DNA of 11,862 bases from Myxococcota bacterium (GTDB lineage: Bacteria; Myxococcota; Polyangia; GCA-2747355; JAKLHH01), in contig JAKLHH010000110.1 in assembly GCA_022710245.1 (NCBI GenBank), positions 1 to 11,862 on the forward strand, given 5' to 3'. Made by a program: the position numbers and the translations under genes. A model generated the notes under the pieces. The model did not search any database, was not told the origin of the DNA, and worked only from the letters and a program-made list of their open reading frames with translations. Positions 1 through 11,862 of the stretch are shown here, piece after piece. How positions within the stretch are numbered: the stretch's first letter is position 1; every line of letters starts with the position of its first letter.

Positions 1-1259
1 CCGTGGCCGTTGCCGTTGCCGTTCCCGTTGCCGCTTCCGTCGAGCCACGCCTCGCCGGCCGTCCCCTCCTCCTCGTCGACCGCCTGCGCGACCGAGGGCG
101 TCACCCCGGCGAGCGCCGCGCTCTCCGTGCCGCCCGTGTGCTCCTCGGCCATCGCCAGCAGGCGCTCCTGCATGGTCTTCACGTTGGCGCCGGTCAGGTT
201 GTTGAGGGAGTGGACCAGCTCGCCGATGTACATCTCGAAGATGCTCTTGCGCCTGGCCTCGAGCCTGGCGTGCTCCTTGTGCCGCAGGAAGTGGGCGAGC
301 TTGCGGCCCACGTCGCGCAGCGCGAGCTTGATCTCCTTGATGATGTCCGGGTAGTGCGCGATCGCCTCCTTGCTCTCGGAGGTGAAGGGCACCCAGACCG
401 AGGCGAAGTGGACGAGGAGCACCATCGGCCCCAGCGGCAGCCCGCCCCGCGGCTGCGCGAGGCCGTACTGCTTCCAGTTGCTCTCCGCCACCGCCTTGAA
501 GATCGCGCAGGCGCTCTGCTGGTACTGGAGCGGCACGCGGTTGGCGAAGCGAATGAGCGAGATCGGTCCCTGCGCCCGGTCCTCGGCCTTGACGGCGATC
601 GTCTCGACGTCGGCGTCCAGCTCGACGGCCGAGCGCAGCTCACCGCCGTAGGCGAGCCCGACCTCGACGCGGAACGGGTTGCCGCGGTAGACCGCGGGCG
701 GCCGCGTCGACGACACGTAGAGGTCCGCGTTGATCTCGCGCTCGAGGCCCTTGCGGATCAGCTCCTCGCCGATGGGGACCACGCAGCTCGTCTGCGGGGC
801 CATGATCCTCACCGACGGGATCGCCTTGTAGAGCCGCTCCATGTCGGCGAGCGTGAGGGTCTTCGGCGAGGCGCACTTCCAGTTCGTGATCGCCGGCAGG
901 TCGGGCGTGACGGTGGGCAGGTCCGGGCTGGGCAGGTCGACCTTGGGGGCGTCGGCCTTGGCAGCGTCGGCCTTGGCAGCGTCGGCCTTGGCGGCGTCGG
1001 TCTTGGCCGCGTCGGTCTTGGCCGCGTCGGTCTTGGCCGCGTCGGTCTTGGCCGCGTCGACCTTGTGCGCGTCGGCCTTGAGGTCCTTCTGCACCTTCTG
1101 GTCGATGACCTTCTGGTCGATGCCCGCCTCGGGCTGGGTGACCGGCCGGTCGACGGAGGTGTCCTTCTGAACGGGCTTCTGGTCCGGCGTGGCGACGGTG
1201 TCGTCGCTGCACGACCAGAGCCCGAGGCAGAACAAGCCGAGCATGGTCAGGTGCCTCAT
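1..1259 (-). CDS. Lipoprotein signal and Lys/Asp repeat fused to topoisomerase VI-B transducer domain (partial, runs off left edge)
   Basis: The frame is open from an ATG at 1259 to the window edge (419 codons, no stop). Residues 1-17 look like a lipoprotein signal peptide (MRHLTMLGLF, then LWSC with Cys17). Residues 20-120 are a Lys/Asp/Pro-rich linker holding ten Lys-x-Asp-Ala-x repeats (61-110). From about residue 130 the protein closely resembles the transducer region of topoisomerase VI subunit B: PIGEELIRKGLE (162-173), GNPFRVEVGLAYGG (193-206), RFANRVPL (237-244), the NWKxYG motif (261-266) and SESKEAIA (294-301), whose Lys297 matches the family's switch lysine. The GHKL ATPase and H2TH domains are absent. 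The tail is acidic and ends in Gly-Asn repeats. A GAGAGGGA ribosome site precedes the ATG. I translated the whole stretch by hand and found no frame break. The domain assignments rest on family knowledge. Whether this is a real fusion, a decayed gene or an assembly join is open. A signal peptide would keep the domain away from DNA. Confidence 0.85.
   Translation of the reverse strand, partial: MRHLTMLGLFCLGLWSCSDDTVATPDQKPVQKDTSVDRPVTQPEAGIDQKVIDQKVQKDLKADAHKVDAAKTDAAKTDAAKTDAAKTDAAKADAAKADAAKADAPKVDLPSPDLPTVTPDLPAITNWKCASPKTLTLADMERLYKAIPSVRIMAPQTSCVVPIGEELIRKGLEREINADLYVSSTRPPAVYRGNPFRVEVGLAYGGELRSAVELDADVETIAVKAEDRAQGPISLIRFANRVPLQYQQSACAIFKAVAESNWKQYGLAQPRGGLPLGPMVLLVHFASVWVPFTSESKEAIAHYPDIIKEIKLALRDVGRKLAHFLRHKEHARLEARRKSIFEMYIGELVHSLNNLTGANVKTMQERLLAMAEEHTGGTESAALAGVTPSVAQAVDEEEGTAGEAWLDGSGNGNGNGNGH
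930..1079 (-). repeat. 15-bp tandem repeat encoding Lys-x-Asp-Ala-x
   Basis: Ten 15-bp units lie in frame inside the lipoprotein/Top6B gene. They encode Lys-(Ala/Thr/Val)-Asp-Ala-(Ala/His/Pro); the tenth diverges to Lys-Val-Asp-Leu-Pro. The central units are nearly identical at DNA level, differing mainly in third positions and Thr/Ala swaps. Alternating charge suggests an extended or helical spacer between the lipid anchor and the downstream domain. Such arrays readily gain and lose units, so copy number may vary between strains and is a likely place for assembly error. Confidence 0.9.
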
Positions 1260-3836: not shown

Positions 3837-5348
3837 TCAGCGCCGCGGCAGCGCCGCGAGGACGCCGTCGGCCGCCTCCTGCCCCGAGCGGACCGCGGCC
3901 TCCATGCAGGGGAAGTCGAGCTCGTTCTTGACCCAGTCGCCGGCCAGCCAGAGGTTCTCGAGAGAGGTGCGCGACGGCGGGCGGAACTTCTGCACGCCGG
4001 GCTCGGCGTTGAAGTAGAGCTTGTGCGCGGCGCGGTTCCGGATCACCTGGTAGTGGAGCACGCCGCGGCGGTCGATCTTCTCGTAGCCCGGGAGCCGCGA
4101 GAGGTCGCGGAGCGCCAGCGCCAGGTGCTCCTCGTCGGAGAGGCGCTCGTAGCCGGTCTCCTGCCCGACCAGGTAGATGACCGAGCCGCTCGTCGGGTCC
4201 TCGCGGTGCTCGCGCATCACCTGCTTGGCGTCGAGCGTGAAGGCGAGCGGCCCCTCGAGCCCGCCGATGACGCTCGGGTAGCGCTTCGTCACCGGCTCGC
4301 GGTGCCAGATTTGCATGGCCAGCGAGGCGATGCCGCGGAGCTCGCGGGCGCGCGCCAGCTCGGGGACGCGCCAGAGCCCGCCGCCCGGGCTGAGCTCCTG
4401 GAGCGCGGTGGCGGGGAGCGTGCAGATGAGGTGGTCGAAGTCGCGGTCCTGCTCCTCGCTCCTCGGCTTCACCGGCACCTTGCCGTCGAAGACCGGGCGC
4501 CCGCGCGGCTGGCCGGCGCGCTCGTGGCCGGCCGGGTCGGGCTCGGCGAAGGTGGCGGCGACGACGCGGCGGCCCGCGAGCTCGAGCCCGACCAGCTTGC
4601 GCAGCGTGGCGAGCTCCGCGCCGCGGCAGGCGAGGTGCGTGGCCAGCGGTTGCCAGAAGCGCTCGCTCATGCCGCCGTCGCAGAACGCGTACTGCGTGCC
4701 GCGGAAGTCGTGCCCCGCCGCCTCGATCGAGCGCAGCATGCTGTAGGCGCTGATCTCGCCCGGCCAGTTGAGCTGCGCCAGGCGCGAGATGCGGAAGACG
4801 CTGGTCTGCACGATGGAGGGCGCGAGGCCGCGCGAGAGGCACCAGGCGGTGAAGCAGAGGTCGTCGAGGGGCTCGAGGTCCCGGGCGCCGAGGAAGACGC
4901 CGAGGTTGGCCAGGATGAAGCGCGCGATGCTCCGCTTCTCCGCGCCAGTGAGGCCGCTGTAGCCGAGCGCGCGGTGGAGGGCCAGCGCCGGGTTGCGGGC
5001 GAAGGCGAGGTCGTGGACGCGCCCGTCGCGCGGCTCGTAGACGATGGTGTGGCCGCCCGCGGGGACCAGGTGCGCCTCGACGTCGACGCCGGCGCGGCGG
5101 AGGAGCCCCTTCATCGCCGTGTACCAGGAGAAGATCACGTGGAGCCCGTGGTCGATCAGGCGCCCCTCGGGGTCACGCCAGGAGTCGGCCTTGCCGCCGA
5201 AGTGGTGGCCGAGGGTGACCAGGCGGACGCGCACGCGGCCCTCCGCGCGCTCGAGGAGGCGCTCGGCCGCGGCCAGCCCCGCCGGTCCGCCACCGACGAC
5301 GAGCACCCGCGGCCGTCCGTCCTTCGCTGGTCCGCCTGCGTTCTTCAT
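3837..5348 (-). CDS. FAD-dependent oxidoreductase of the carotenoid-desaturase / flavin amine oxidase superfamily
   Basis: 503 residues. The N-terminus has the FAD Rossmann motif VLVVGGGPAGLAAAERL (15-31; Gly19, Gly21, Gly24). A second family patch, HFGGKADSWRD, follows near residue 50, then DHGLHVIFSWY. The C-terminus carries NLWLAGDWVKNELDFPCMEA (465-484), the FAD-contacting motif of phytoene desaturase-like enzymes (COG3349 type). Such enzymes remove hydrogens from, or otherwise remodel, isoprenoid chains; the substrate here is unknown. No signal peptide is present, so it is expected in the cytoplasm or on the inner membrane face. The ATG at 5348 overlaps the previous gene's TGA as ATGA, implying translational coupling. 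A longer frame reaches 5807 but would run inside the upstream gene with no family sequence. This is the last gene of the five-gene cluster, ending at a hairpin. Confidence 0.92.
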   Translation of the reverse strand: MKNAGGPAKDGRPRVLVVGGGPAGLAAAERLLERAEGRVRVRLVTLGHHFGGKADSWRDPEGRLIDHGLHVIFSWYTAMKGLLRRAGVDVEAHLVPAGGHTIVYEPRDGRVHDLAFARNPALALHRALGYSGLTGAEKRSIARFILANLGVFLGARDLEPLDDLCFTAWCLSRGLAPSIVQTSVFRISRLAQLNWPGEISAYSMLRSIEAAGHDFRGTQYAFCDGGMSERFWQPLATHLACRGAELATLRKLVGLELAGRRVVAATFAEPDPAGHERAGQPRGRPVFDGKVPVKPRSEEQDRDFDHLICTLPATALQELSPGGGLWRVPELARARELRGIASLAMQIWHREPVTKRYPSVIGGLEGPLAFTLDAKQVMREHREDPTSGSVIYLVGQETGYERLSDEEHLALALRDLSRLPGYEKIDRRGVLHYQVIRNRAAHKLYFNAEPGVQKFRPPSRTSLENLWLAGDWVKNELDFPCMEAAVRSGQEAADGVLAALPRR

Positions 5349-6457
5349 CGCCGCGGGTGCCCCGAGCGGAAGAGGCTGCGGCCGAAGGGGCGGTCGAGCC
5401 CCACCACCTCGGCGAAGCAGTCGCCGCGCGCCCGCTCGCCATCGAAGACGCCGCTCACCTCGAGCCCGCCCGCCCACATGTTCGCCGGGAAGACGACCAG
5501 CTCCTGCGCTGGCACGCTCGCGCGCAGGTTGAGGACGCCGCGGCCCGGGACGCGGAGCTGCCAGCCCGTCGGGTAGACCGTGCGCGTCCGCGGGCTGCGC
5601 CAGACGGCGCCGCTCTGGCTGACGCCGAGGCGGCTGAGCGCGATCGGCGTCACGCGCCCGTCCGGCTCCTCGACCACCGCGAAGGAGCCCGCGGCGAGGT
5701 TGTGCTGGCGGTCGAAGATGAGCCCGATCTCCAGGTCGTGGCCGCTCGCGAGCTGGACGCCGAACCAGGTCCAGCCGTCGAGGTGGTCCGTGTAGAGGAA
5801 GCCCCACTCGTGCTTCAGCCAGGCGAGCCCGCGCACGCGCCGGCGCTCGCCGTCGACGGTGAGGACGCCGGAGGCCGCCAGCCGCGGGATCGAGTAGTAG
5901 TAGTGCGAGGAGCGGGGCGGCACCGCGAGGTAGCCCTTCCGTCCGAGGAGCGCGGGGGGCTTCCGTGGGGTCAGCTCGAGGCTGAGGGTGCTCCGCCGCG
6001 TCGCCGCGCGGAGCTCGACCGCGCCGTCCTCGCGCCGCCGGGCGGTCCAGGAGTCGTGGCGCAGCGCGAGGCGATCACGGGCCGCGCTGGCGGCCCAGAC
6101 GTCCGGGTAGGCGTGCTTCTCGCGCAGCTCGAGCTCGCCGCGGCTGCGGTCGGTGAGCGAGAAGAACGCCATCTGGAAGGGGTCGAGGAACCAGCGCAGG
6201 GGCAGGCCGAGGAGGCGGTCGTGGTCCGTGTGCTGCTTGATGAAGCCGAGGAACCAGTCGTAGCGCCGGCCGGCGTCGTCGACGAGGTGGCCGTGCAGGT
6301 GCCACCACTCGGTCTGCGCGTCGTCGTGCGCCGCGTGATCGGCCGGGAGCACGACGCCGCGCACCGGGTCCGCCTCGCGCAGCAGGTGCCGCGTGCAGCC
6401 CGGGCTCGCGAGGACGAGGACGAGGACGCTGAGCAGAGCGATCAGGAGCGCGCGCAC
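5345..6457 (-). CDS. CrtC/AttH-type lipocalin-like lipoprotein (COG5621-like)
   Basis: 370 residues from a GTG placed directly after the preceding TAG, with GGAG seven bases upstream. A hydrophobic signal (RALLIALLSVLVLVLAS) ends in SPGC, so Cys21 is a likely lipidated residue. Family landmarks are TEWWHLHGHL (about 49-58), YYYSIPRL (about 185-192), GLAWLKHEWGFL (about 209-220), DGWTWFGVQL (about 226-235) and MWAGGLEVSGVF near the end. These belong to the tandem-lipocalin fold shared by carotenoid 1,2-hydratase CrtC, AttH and the proteins annotated as predicted secreted hydrolases. By analogy it may hydrate or bind an isoprenoid or lipid in the periplasm. The usual WxDHEW motif has Lys in place of Asp, which may change activity. 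Pairing with the downstream desaturase-like enzyme supports isoprenoid chemistry but does not prove it. Confidence 0.88.
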   Translation of the reverse strand: MRALLIALLSVLVLVLASPGCTRHLLREADPVRGVVLPADHAAHDDAQTEWWHLHGHLVDDAGRRYDWFLGFIKQHTDHDRLLGLPLRWFLDPFQMAFFSLTDRSRGELELREKHAYPDVWAASAARDRLALRHDSWTARRREDGAVELRAATRRSTLSLELTPRKPPALLGRKGYLAVPPRSSHYYYSIPRLAASGVLTVDGERRRVRGLAWLKHEWGFLYTDHLDGWTWFGVQLASGHDLEIGLIFDRQHNLAAGSFAVVEEPDGRVTPIALSRLGVSQSGAVWRSPRTRTVYPTGWQLRVPGRGVLNLRASVPAQELVVFPANMWAGGLEVSGVFDGERARGDCFAEVVGLDRPFGRSLFRSGHPRR

Positions 6458-10408: not shown

Positions 10409-11862
10409 CTAGCGCTTCGCCGCTGGCACGCGCGCGCCGAGGCTGCGCAGGAGCGGCGCCTGCTCGCGGAGCGCGTCGCGGGTGAGCACGCGGCGCTCGA
10501 GGCTGGCGCGCGGGGCGCCCGCGAGGTGGAGCGAGCGCTTCATCATGCCGTCGACGGCCGCGAGCTCGATCGCCTGCCGCTCGGAGACGCCGCGGCCGTC
10601 CGCGATCTTCAGCGCGCGGTTCCAGCCGGCGCGCATGGTGCCGAGCAGCGAGCCCTTCGCGCGCGGGCTGGTCACCGGCTTGCCGAAGGTGTTCTGCACG
10701 GCCTCGAGGTCGGAGACGTGGACGCCGCCCAGGTTGGCGAGGTCACCGGCGACGGTCAGCACCTTGTCCCGGTGCTGGTCGAGGAGCCGCGCGCCCTCGG
10801 AGGTCTCGGCGAGGTTCGCGCCCTCGGCGATGATCTTGCGCTTGCCCTGGTGCGTGCCGGAGGTGAGGTAGGCGGGGACGGTGCGGTCGGTGAGCACGCT
10901 GCCGAGCGCGTTGACGCCCACGATGTCCGCGCGCACCTGCGAGGCGTCCATGCCCTCCTTGAAGCTCTTCGCGAGCTGGCCGCCCTTCCAGGTGGCGAGG
11001 TCGCCGTTCGCGCTGCGGCACGCCTCGACCTCGGCGAGCCAGCGCTTCACCTGCGCGGGCTTCGGATCCTTGCCCGGGAAGAGCAGCGTGCCGCCGACCT
11101 TGCGGCCGCCGACGGTCCAGAGCTCCTGCACGCCGATGACGCGCGCGCCGTCCTTCAGCGCGGCGAGCCCGAAGGCGCGCCCCACCTCGCCCCAGCCCTG
11201 CGCGACGACGGTGGCGCCGCGGAGCTTGAGCCCCACGCGGTGCGCGGCCAGGCGGGTCGACATCCAGACGCCCTCGCCGGTGGAGATGGCGCGGTACTCG
11301 ATGCCGCCCTTGGGATCGATGGTGCCGTCGGCGAGGCGCATGACCGCCTTGCCGCTGACGCCCGCCGAGGGCTTCTCGGGGCTGCCGTACGTCTCGGAGA
11401 GGACCTTCATCTCGGGGGCCTTGGTGTTGACGTCGCCGGCCTGGATGTCGAGGCCGGGGCCGACCTCGCCGCCGGTCGCGCGGAAGCTCGCCGCGAAGCG
11501 GGTCATCAGCTCGCCGCGGTTGAAGATCGACGCGGCCGGGTCGACCAGGTCGCCGACCCTGGCCTGGTAGCGGCTGCCCACCTTGACCACGCGGCCGGCG
11601 CCGATGCCGCCCTTGGCGCCGCGGAAGCTCTGCGAGGCGAGCGCGTCGCGCGAGGTCGCGAGCTTGGTGTCCATCTTCAGCGCGAGCGCGTAGACCTCCT
11701 CGGGGAAGACGCCGTAGTGGAGGCGGAGCCCGCCCTTGTTCGTCTCCTGGCGGGTGGCGCTCACGCGCTTGTCGGTGTTGGCGATGCGGTTCTCGGCGAA
11801 GCCGGTGCGGTACCAGGGGAACTCGACCTCGGTGCCGTCGGCGAGGCTGACCTTGAAGTTGC
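10409..11862 (-). CDS. Divergent Glu/Leu/Phe/Val-family dehydrogenase (N-terminus beyond right edge)
   Basis: 483 residues lie in the window and the start is missing. The frame continues through the possible GTG at 11764 to the edge with family-like sequence, so that GTG is not the start. Counting from the first whole codon, NKGGLRLH (Lys42), Lys66 in KMDTKL and FRGAKGGI (Lys83) match the substrate-binding and catalytic lysines of glutamate dehydrogenases; the 24-residue gap between the first two is conserved. GDVNTKAPEM matches the catalytic aspartate region. GWGEVGRAF is the dinucleotide-binding turn, and AEGANLAET and DLANLGGVHVSDLEAVQN match the C-terminal domain. Such enzymes interconvert an amino acid and its 2-oxoacid with NAD(P). 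Departures are RGAKGG for GGAKGG, GWGEVG for GFGNVG, NLGGV for NAGGV and unusual length, so glutamate specificity is likely but unproven. Confidence 0.9.
   Translation of the reverse strand, partial: NFKVSLADGTEVEFPWYRTGFAENRIANTDKRVSATRQETNKGGLRLHYGVFPEEVYALALKMDTKLATSRDALASQSFRGAKGGIGAGRVVKVGSRYQARVGDLVDPAASIFNRGELMTRFAASFRATGGEVGPGLDIQAGDVNTKAPEMKVLSETYGSPEKPSAGVSGKAVMRLADGTIDPKGGIEYRAISTGEGVWMSTRLAAHRVGLKLRGATVVAQGWGEVGRAFGLAALKDGARVIGVQELWTVGGRKVGGTLLFPGKDPKPAQVKRWLAEVEACRSANGDLATWKGGQLAKSFKEGMDASQVRADIVGVNALGSVLTDRTVPAYLTSGTHQGKRKIIAEGANLAETSEGARLLDQHRDKVLTVAGDLANLGGVHVSDLEAVQNTFGKPVTSPRAKGSLLGTMRAGWNRALKIADGRGVSERQAIELAAVDGMMKRSLHLAGAPRASLERRVLTRDALREQAPLLRSLGARVPAAKR

What the first reader, a model, noticed from the sequence alone, without database searches (positions are those of the whole stretch)
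1..1259. Lipoprotein signal fused in frame to the transducer domain of topoisomerase VI-B
The sequence shows one open frame joining a signal peptide with a lipobox-like Cys17 and a Lys/Asp linker to an almost canonical Top6B transducer, including NWKxYG and the switch-lysine region. The GHKL ATPase and H2TH domains are missing, and the join falls close to the natural domain boundary (residues 120-132, about 864-902). An exported Top6B transducer cannot act in DNA cleavage as known. It is either a repurposed domain, a recombination scar that removed the first half of a top6B gene, or an assembly chimera. I know of no described example.
Basis: partly seen in the sequence, partly recalled or inferred. 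Interest (0 to 1): 0.8.

Follow-up and report, generated by a model that had tools for sequence, protein, structure and literature searches.

The report
Two ordinary genes joined by error
A strange-looking protein, half secreted lipoprotein and half DNA-untangling enzyme, is best explained as two ordinary bacterial genes joined at a short stretch of DNA that both could supply, most likely when the sequence was pieced together and not by the bacterium.

Summary
The open frame is real: minus strand 1259 to 3, 419 codons, cut by the window's left end. Its two halves are as described. It is not good evidence of an exported topoisomerase domain.

Residues 1-138 read as the start of a lipoprotein family: lipobox Cys, Lys/Asp linker, then PPC-like repeats that begin roughly N-x-x-C-A-[ST]-[PA]-x-x-L-T-L. 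Strong members are in all 4 held genomes of the order whose Top6B is closest. The window's NWKCASPKTLTLA scores 27.9 bits against that repeat start (next best site 2.8). One database relative (P0205) has KCASPKTLTL at the end of its own linker.

Top6B homology begins at residue 128-133 in 106 of 120 relatives. One of them reads ASPRTLALADIERLYKAIP there. So residues 130-138 (27 nt, window 846-872) fit both parents, and the frame is kept because both read them in the same phase. The join cuts inside the H2TH domain.

None of 76 informative top6B loci (of 80 fetched, the best of 501) has the fusion. Most likely an assembly or library chimera; second, an in vivo short-homology scar. Reads across 840-880 would decide.

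The parts
873..1259 (-). Lipoprotein-only part, residues 1-129: signal peptide with Cys17, Lys/Asp/Ala linker, then N126-W-K-C129, the start of a PPC-like repeat
   Evidence: ORF; same layout in P0205, P0180, P0181, P0194, P0196; PPC-repeat start profile 27.9 bits at residues 126-138, next site 2.8
846..872 (-). 27-nt segment holding the join, residues 130-138 ASPKTLTLA, which both parent genes can supply
   Evidence: Top6B homology starts at residue 128-133 in 106 of 120; lipoprotein profile runs to residue 138; P0205 has KCASPKTLTL, Top6B relatives have ASPRTLALAD (P0011) and SPKTLELAE (P0005); 23 of 27 nt identical to a lipoprotein repeat of G001
3..845 (-). Top6B-only part, residues 139-419: end of H2TH, transducer and C-terminal tail, cut by the window's left end
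   Evidence: PF09239 E 6.3e-54, NF003218, PDB Top6B chains; 75-80% identical to the eight closest Top6B by blastp
252..797 (-). Top6B transducer domain (Pfam PF09239), residues 155-336, with NWKQYG at residues 261-266 and the switch-loop lysine K297
   Evidence: alignment with 11 Top6B. Which lysine is the switch-loop one is taken from its place in TSESKEA (recalled)
929..1080 (-). 15-base tandem repeat coding the Lys/Thr/Asp/Ala linker
   Evidence: Tandem Repeats Finder
1..38 (.). Hexamer tandem repeat (Asn-Gly tail of Top6B) at the very left edge of the window, a likely place for an assembly to stop
   Evidence: Tandem Repeats Finder: 1-33 period 6 and 1-38 period 12; P0001 and P0003 carry a like Asn-Gly tail. 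That the window edge is a contig end is inference

Best explanation
The frame is a chimera of two ordinary genes of a Myxococcota-like lineage (inferred from the record titles of relatives). The upstream parent is a lipoprotein gene of a family with an Asp-rich linker and tandem PPC-like repeats. The downstream parent is a normal full-length top6B. By chance the first repeat of the lipoprotein (N-x-K-C-A-S-P-K-T-L-T-L-A) and the H2TH region of Top6B (A-S-P-K-T-L-T-L-A-D) can both supply the same nine codons, in the same phase. A short-read assembler, or a chimeric library molecule, passed from one gene to the other inside this 27-nt stretch. Because both genes read the stretch in the same frame, the fusion is automatically in frame. 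Shown here: the identity of both halves, the overlap at residues 130-138 as judged from relatives, and the absence of the architecture in the relatives examined. Inferred: that the overlap was identical or nearly so at DNA level in the true parents, and that the join arose in the data and not in the cell. The natural products would be an unremarkable lipoprotein and an unremarkable DNA topoisomerase VI subunit B.
For: (1) Lipoprotein parent: a 331-aa stretch of a G019 lipoprotein matches at E <= 1e-6 in 12 of 289 genomes. The four strongest, G019 (itself), G001, G028 and G037 (best E 2.0e-45 to 5.3e-35 in the last three), are all 4 held genomes of G019's order. (2) A profile of 30 repeat starts from 9 such proteins scores window residues 126-138 at 27.9 bits. 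The next best site of the window protein scores 2.8; true members scored without their own protein range 1.8-33.3. The best of 2000 shuffles reached 16.4, and the best site in any of 96 Top6B longer than 560 aa 8.5. (3) P0205 ends its linker with PTNSKCASPKTLTLS, against the window's AITNWKCASPKTLTLA. (4) Top6B parent: homology starts at residue 128-133 in 106 of 120 proteins (3 earlier, 11 later). (5) In 14 of the first 15 Top6B by E-value the join site is the best match of the nine-residue repeat-start motif in the whole protein (28 of 96 overall, within the top 20 of about 650 sites in 58 of 96). (6) A lipoprotein repeat in G001 is identical to the window at 23 of 27 nt; in G019 only 1 of 2200 positions of top6B fits the repeat starts better than the join site. 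(7) The fusion is in 0 of the 76 of 80 top6B loci whose contig reaches far enough upstream. (8) The join cuts inside H2TH. (9) The left window edge lies in a hexamer repeat, so the Top6B piece is probably a tail of about 870 bases at a contig end (inference). (10) P0070 (1,914-base contig) shows another Top6B joined at another point to a sequence unlike Top6B. MetaVelvet-DL (PMC8171044, passages) describes chimeric contigs arising at nodes common to two sequences in de Bruijn graphs.
Against: No reads, coverage or assembly data were available, so an in vivo event with the same footprint cannot be excluded. The exact parent sequences were not found: the Top6B DNA at the join is only 18 (G019), 12 (G001) and 11 (G002) of 27 identical to the window, and for G001 and G002 the join site is not special at DNA level (231 of 2257 and 299 of 2548 positions fit better). 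Within the window's own transducer half one other 27-mer reaches 21 of 27 against the repeat starts, near the 23 of the join. The rank statistic is weaker in distant Top6B (median rank 11, counted from 0, of about 650), and the Top6B sequences are related, so they are not independent tests. The repeat-start set was picked with a pattern that itself fixes the Cys and two hydrophobic positions. The specific DNA pattern of the repeat start was found in only 1 of 5 genomes (G019, twice). Both halves have similar codon choice, so an inter-species chimera is not indicated. That the window's left edge is a contig end is inferred.
Confidence: 0.76

Rival explanations
1. A real recombination scar: in the cell, short-homology recombination or a template switch at the same 27-nt stretch joined a PPC lipoprotein gene to top6B, giving a pseudogene-like fusion or a partial duplicate. 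The fusion has no selected function.
For: The same overlap would also guide recombination in a cell. Both halves look alike in codon choice. In G019 a PPC lipoprotein lies on the same contig as top6B, about 30 kb away.
Against: The transducer half has no stop or frameshift and is 75-80% identical to the eight closest Top6B, so the event would have to be recent. PMC11302465 (passages) reports that bacterial families with topo VI lack topo IV outside Terrabacteria and Pseudomonadota, and suggests topo VI can fill its role, so loss of a sole top6B could be costly. Whether this lineage has topo IV or a second top6B was not tested (no genome held).
Confidence: 0.18
2. A repurposed exported domain: the lipoprotein signal really carries a Top6B transducer to the outer membrane, where the sheet and stalk act as a binding or dimerisation scaffold.
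For: The frame is intact and has, by eye, a plausible lipobox and ribosome-binding sequence; NWKxYG and the switch-loop region are kept. A Top6B-transducer homologue without a clear GHKL domain exists in yeast (Rec102; PMC11746154, passages).
Against: Not found in 76 informative top6B loci, nor in the 22 protein relatives that I read in full out of 120 listed and 7999 scored; the four listed proteins without ATPase domains that were not among those 22 also begin inside Top6B. The switch-loop lysine, which serves ATP turnover by the missing GHKL domain (PMC11746154), is kept. The join splits H2TH. The linker ends in the first residues of a PPC repeat whose remainder is missing.
Confidence: 0.03
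3. A deletion at the native top6B locus: in G019 and G001 a Cys-rich lipoprotein gene lies directly upstream of top6B on the same strand, so one deletion of about 1.5 kb could fuse them.
For: Lipoprotein gene at L093 9059-9607 before top6B 9698-11920, and at L095 7249-6638 before top6B 6568-4343.
Against: That lipoprotein has a short proline-rich linker and a different Cys-rich domain, not the PPC start seen in the window. Its upstream genes (two lspA-like genes, and an ileS-like gene in G019; names recalled) are not in the window, and no right-hand window gene has a significant match near top6B in G019, G001 or G002.
Confidence: 0.03

Closest known systems
DNA topoisomerase VI subunit B (Top6B; Pfam PF09239, NCBIfam NF003218 and TIGR01052; PDB 2q2e, 2zbk, 1mu5)
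   Same: Residues 130-419 align with the end of H2TH, the transducer and the tail, including NWKxYG and the switch-loop region.
   Different: No GHKL ATPase and only the last piece of H2TH; preceded by a lipoprotein signal.
PPC-repeat lipoproteins with D-rich or D/K-rich linkers (e.g. P0177, P0178, P0205; P0177 reaches the Pfam PF04151 cut-off, P0205 does not)
   Same: Signal with lipobox Cys, Asp-rich linker, N-x-x-C-A-[ST]-[PA]-x-x-L-T-L type repeat start.
   Different: The window protein leaves the family after residue 138; the rest of the repeats is absent.
Rec102 of the yeast Spo11 core complex
   Same: A Top6B-transducer homologue without a clear GHKL domain (PMC11746154, passages).
   Different: A meiotic protein whose switch loop is short and whose switch-loop sequence is not essential; not exported (recalled). 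Sequence relation not tested here.
Chimeric metagenome contigs at common de Bruijn graph nodes
   Same: Two sequences joined at a stretch that both share (PMC8171044, passages).
   Different: The published case concerns stretches shared between species; here the shared stretch is inferred from relatives and not seen in reads.

Membership tests
Top6B | Transducer domain with WKxY and switch-loop lysine | tested here: met
   PF09239 E 6.3e-54; NWKQYG and SESK conserved in the alignment
Top6B | GHKL ATPase domain | tested here: not met
   No Pfam match before residue 155; NCBIfam Top6B models start at residue 130, except NF011439, whose match is stretched over the linker from residue 59 but starts at model position 420 of 795
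Top6B | Complete H2TH domain | tested here: not met
   Alignment starts at M. mazei residue 289, after R263 and K268 of H2TH
Top6B | top6A next to top6B | not testable with these tools
   The window ends inside the frame and no genome is held for it; in G019, G001 and G002 a gene of 364-367 aa that I take for top6A (name recalled) follows top6B
PPC-repeat lipoprotein of this order | Signal peptide with lipobox Cys and Asp-rich linker | tested here: met
   Alignment with P0205, P0180, P0181, P0194, P0196; signal peptide judged by eye
PPC-repeat lipoprotein of this order | Repeat start N-x-x-C-[AT]-[ST]-[PA]-x-x-[LVI]-[TA]-L after the linker | tested here: met
   27.9 bits, range of true members 1.8-33.3
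PPC-repeat lipoprotein of this order | At least one complete PPC-like repeat | tested here: not met
   Sequence turns into Top6B at residues 130-138
Assembly or library chimera | Two unrelated parents that share sequence at the join | tested here: met
   (judged from relatives, not from the parents themselves, which were not found)
Assembly or library chimera | No reads across the join, or a coverage step | not testable with these tools
   No reads available
Assembly or library chimera | Join not seen in other genomes | tested here: met
   0 of 76 informative loci out of 80 fetched; ten early-starting matches of the class search checked and full-length

The most novel reading that the evidence does not exclude
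A very recent recombination in the cell, at a 27-nt in-frame overlap, produced a working gene whose product displays a Top6B transducer on the outer membrane as a lipid-anchored, linker-borne scaffold: a DNA-topoisomerase domain moved out of the cytoplasm.
Probability: 0.03. Interest if true: 0.75.

Novelty: not a real feature. Interest (0 to 1): 0.1.

Why it matters
If real it would be a nucleic-acid enzyme domain turned into an envelope protein, which would be very surprising. As found, it matters as a warning: in very G+C-rich genomes, where codon choice is nearly fixed, unrelated genes that share nine residues can share nearly the same 27 bases in the same phase. A join there yields a long, in-frame, domain-like fusion that looks designed. 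Checking whether both parents explain the residues at a join is a cheap test for such cases.

Tried and rejected
Deletion at the native locus: attractive because relatives carry a lipoprotein gene directly upstream of top6B, rejected because that lipoprotein and its upstream genes differ from the window.

Synteny of the right-hand genes: the 131-aa neighbour (1381-1776) has no match in 289 genomes of the class (the tool warns that an empty answer shows nothing). No window protein matches nine stretches around PPC lipoproteins at E <= 1e-4.

Lipoprotein search by the window's own N-terminus (56 proteins at E <= 0.001 among 7991 candidates) gave what look like low-complexity hits in the nine that I read. 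The family was found through a G019 lipoprotein instead.

Structure prediction of the fusion was poor (mean pLDDT 44.8) and is not used.

Inter-species chimera: not indicated, codon choice is alike on both sides.

Plasmid collection: no match. First genome-contig scan with the single sequence: nothing. Viral contigs and the phage collection were not searched.

In print: one search for topo VI / Top6B with lipoprotein, signal peptide and transducer (529 papers hold at least 3 of 5 terms, 15 listed) lists no title that describes such a fusion; I saw titles and abstract starts only. In PMC11302465 the words lipoprotein and fusion do not occur in the main text.

Rows dropped: for the 30 repeat starts I used 9 of the 23 frames printed. 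Left out were copies of the same frames (L133, L157, L155, L152, L153, L145, L148, L156) and the hits outside the order (L137-L141, L144). Repeat starts that my pattern did not catch, and any start within 40 residues after another, were also left out.

Full report
WHAT IS THERE. The minus-strand frame 1259..3 is open, starts with ATG and runs off the window's left end after 419 codons. The C-terminal two thirds is an almost canonical Top6B transducer: Pfam PF09239 at residues 155-336, E = 6.3e-54, NCBIfam NF003218 at residues 130-380, and five distinct Top6B sequences in the Protein Data Bank. It is 75-80% identical by blastp to the eight closest Top6B. The N-terminal third is, by eye, a lipoprotein signal (Cys17), then a Lys/Asp/Ala linker made of 15-base repeats.

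WHERE THE JOIN IS. In blastp against 120 relatives the Top6B match starts at residue 128-133 in 106 (exactly 130 in 61), earlier in 3 and later in 11. Reading the other way, I asked how far the lipoprotein goes. Among 289 genomes of the class, G019 has the closest Top6B (69% identity). It also has a lipoprotein with a D/K linker followed by repeats that begin AKCTTPTVVTL, GKCSGAQAVTL, SKCATPQTITL and GACATPKVVTL. A search with a 331-aa stretch of it (residues 100-430, the end of the linker and the first repeats) matched 12 of 289 genomes at E <= 1e-6. The four strong ones, G019, G001, G028 and G037, are all 4 genomes held for G019's order; the other eight have best E-values of 1.7e-11 to 8.6e-7. 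From 9 of these proteins I took 30 repeat starts. Their profile gives the window's NWKCASPKTLTLA (residues 126-138) 27.9 bits. The second best site in the window protein has 2.8, and true members scored without their own protein have 1.8-33.3. The best of 2000 shuffled window proteins has 16.4, and the best site in any of 96 Top6B longer than 560 aa has 8.5. The pattern used to collect starts fixes the Cys and two hydrophobic positions, so those columns are not independent. The Asn (24 of 30), the Ala or Pro at residue 132 (30 of 30) and the Thr at residue 136 (15 of 30) were not fixed. A narrower DNA pattern of the repeat start was found in 1 of 5 genomes only (G019, two places), so the exact wording of the motif varies.

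BOTH PARENTS EXPLAIN THE SAME NINE RESIDUES. A database search with the G019 lipoprotein found 60 relatives among 7990 scored candidates. One of them, P0205, ends its linker with PTNSKCASPKTLTLS; the window has AITNWKCASPKTLTLA. Top6B relatives at the same place read KASPRTLALADIERLYKAIP (P0011) or NGSPKTLELAEIERLFKAIP (P0005); the window has CASPKTLTLADMERLYKAIP. Residues 130-138, 27 bases at 846-872, fit either gene. In 14 of the first 15 Top6B by E-value the join site is the best match to the nine-residue repeat-start motif in the whole protein. Over all 96 it is best in 28, within the top 20 of about 650 sites in 58, and has a median rank of 11 counted from 0. At DNA level a lipoprotein repeat of G001 is identical to the window at 23 of 27 bases. 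In the G019 top6B gene only 1 of 2200 positions fits the 30 repeat starts better than the join site does. In G001 and G002 many do (231 of 2257 and 299 of 2548), and another 27-mer in the window's own transducer half reaches 21 of 27. The held Top6B DNA is not close to the window at the join (18, 12 and 11 of 27 for G019, G001 and G002), so the shared stretch is inferred from relatives, not read from the true parents.

WHY IN FRAME. Both genes read the shared stretch in the same phase, so a join inside it keeps the frame without selection. An open frame is also cheap here: third positions are 98-99% G+C in the two halves, and one plus-strand frame of the same 870 bases has no stop either.

NOT A DOMAIN BOUNDARY. 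Query residue 132 corresponds to M. mazei Top6B residue 289. Residues R263, K268 and K308 are the H2TH residues mutated in M. mazei (PMC5922973, passages). The join lies between them, inside H2TH.

RELATIVES. Of 80 top6B loci fetched (the best 80 of 501), 72 show a GHKL Asn-box motif in the same frame. Four more (L012, L020, L044, L079) have 300-815 open codons upstream of the match. Their last 60 residues before it read as Top6B, L044 has a variant Asn-box, and L020 the SRGQQG motif; in L012 and L079 neither motif was found. Four are cut by the contig start within 85 codons of the match (L007, L021, L030, L055). So 0 of 76 informative loci has the fusion. Ten listed transducer matches began at residues 54-123 (G135, G261, G222, G289, G005, G009, G088, G184, G211, G227); all ten are full-length Top6B with an Asn-box upstream. 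Among proteins, 7999 were scored and 120 listed. I read 22 in full and none has a lipoprotein start. Four further listed proteins without ATPase domains begin inside Top6B. The rest of the 120 carry ATPase-domain matches in the list.

GENOME CONTEXT. No genome is held for the window. In G019 and G001, top6B is followed by a gene that I take for top6A and preceded by a different Cys-rich lipoprotein gene and then lspA-like genes (names recalled from the sequences, not tested). That neighbourhood suggested a local deletion, but the window's lipoprotein has the PPC start. None of the 13 other window proteins matches the top6B regions of G019, G001 or G002 beyond one 27-residue hit at E 0.008. None matches nine further stretches, the PPC lipoprotein neighbourhoods and the rest of the G019 top6B contig. 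The window's left edge is inside a hexamer repeat (1-38) that codes an Asn-Gly tail like that of P0001 and P0003. I infer that the contig ends there, which would make the Top6B piece a tail of about 870 bases; such tails are a usual form of misjoin (recalled).

PRECEDENT. P0070, on a 1,914-base contig, begins to match its relatives only at residue 67, so Top6B joined to something else occurs in metagenome data. MetaVelvet-DL describes de Bruijn nodes common to two sequences as a source of chimeric contigs, with training graphs at k = 31 (PMC8171044, passages).

VERDICT. Two ordinary genes joined inside a 27-base stretch that both can supply: about 0.94 in all. Made in the data: 0.76. Made in the cell, without function: 0.18. 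A functional exported transducer: 0.03. A deletion at the native locus: 0.03. Reads across 846-872 decide.

Noticed in passing
L093 9059-9607 and L095 6638-7249: In G019 and G001 a short Cys-rich lipoprotein gene sits directly upstream of top6B on the same strand, with two adjacent lspA-like genes (name recalled) farther upstream; the order looks conserved.
   Followed up: partly
P0056 (711 aa): A Top6B whose N-terminal part carries a weak Intein_splicing match (residues 174-223, E 2.5e-5, below the Pfam cut-off) ending right before SRGQQG (residue 224) of the ATPase domain; it looks like an intein in Top6B.
   Followed up: partly
L012, L014, L039, L079: Archaeal top6B frames with 763-815 open codons upstream of the transducer match, against 288-300 in several other archaeal loci; possibly inteins in the ATPase domain.
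   Followed up: no
P0070 (422 aa): Another apparent Top6B chimera on a 1,914-base contig: residues 1-66 unlike Top6B, the rest 72-81% identical to five relatives.
   Followed up: partly
G019, G001, G028, G037 (L133-L136, L145-L157): A multi-copy family of PPC-repeat lipoproteins with D-rich or D/K-rich linkers, strong in all 4 held genomes of one order and weak (best E 1.7e-11 to 8.6e-7) in 8 of the other 285 genomes searched.
   Followed up: partly
window 3837-6457: A flavin amine-oxidase-like gene next to a CrtC/lipocalin gene; matches to both are also close together in G098 (L109) and G052 (L108).
   Followed up: no
window 10409-11860: A Glu/Leu/Phe/Val dehydrogenase, cut by the right window edge, 57% identical to one in G001 (L107).
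   Followed up: no
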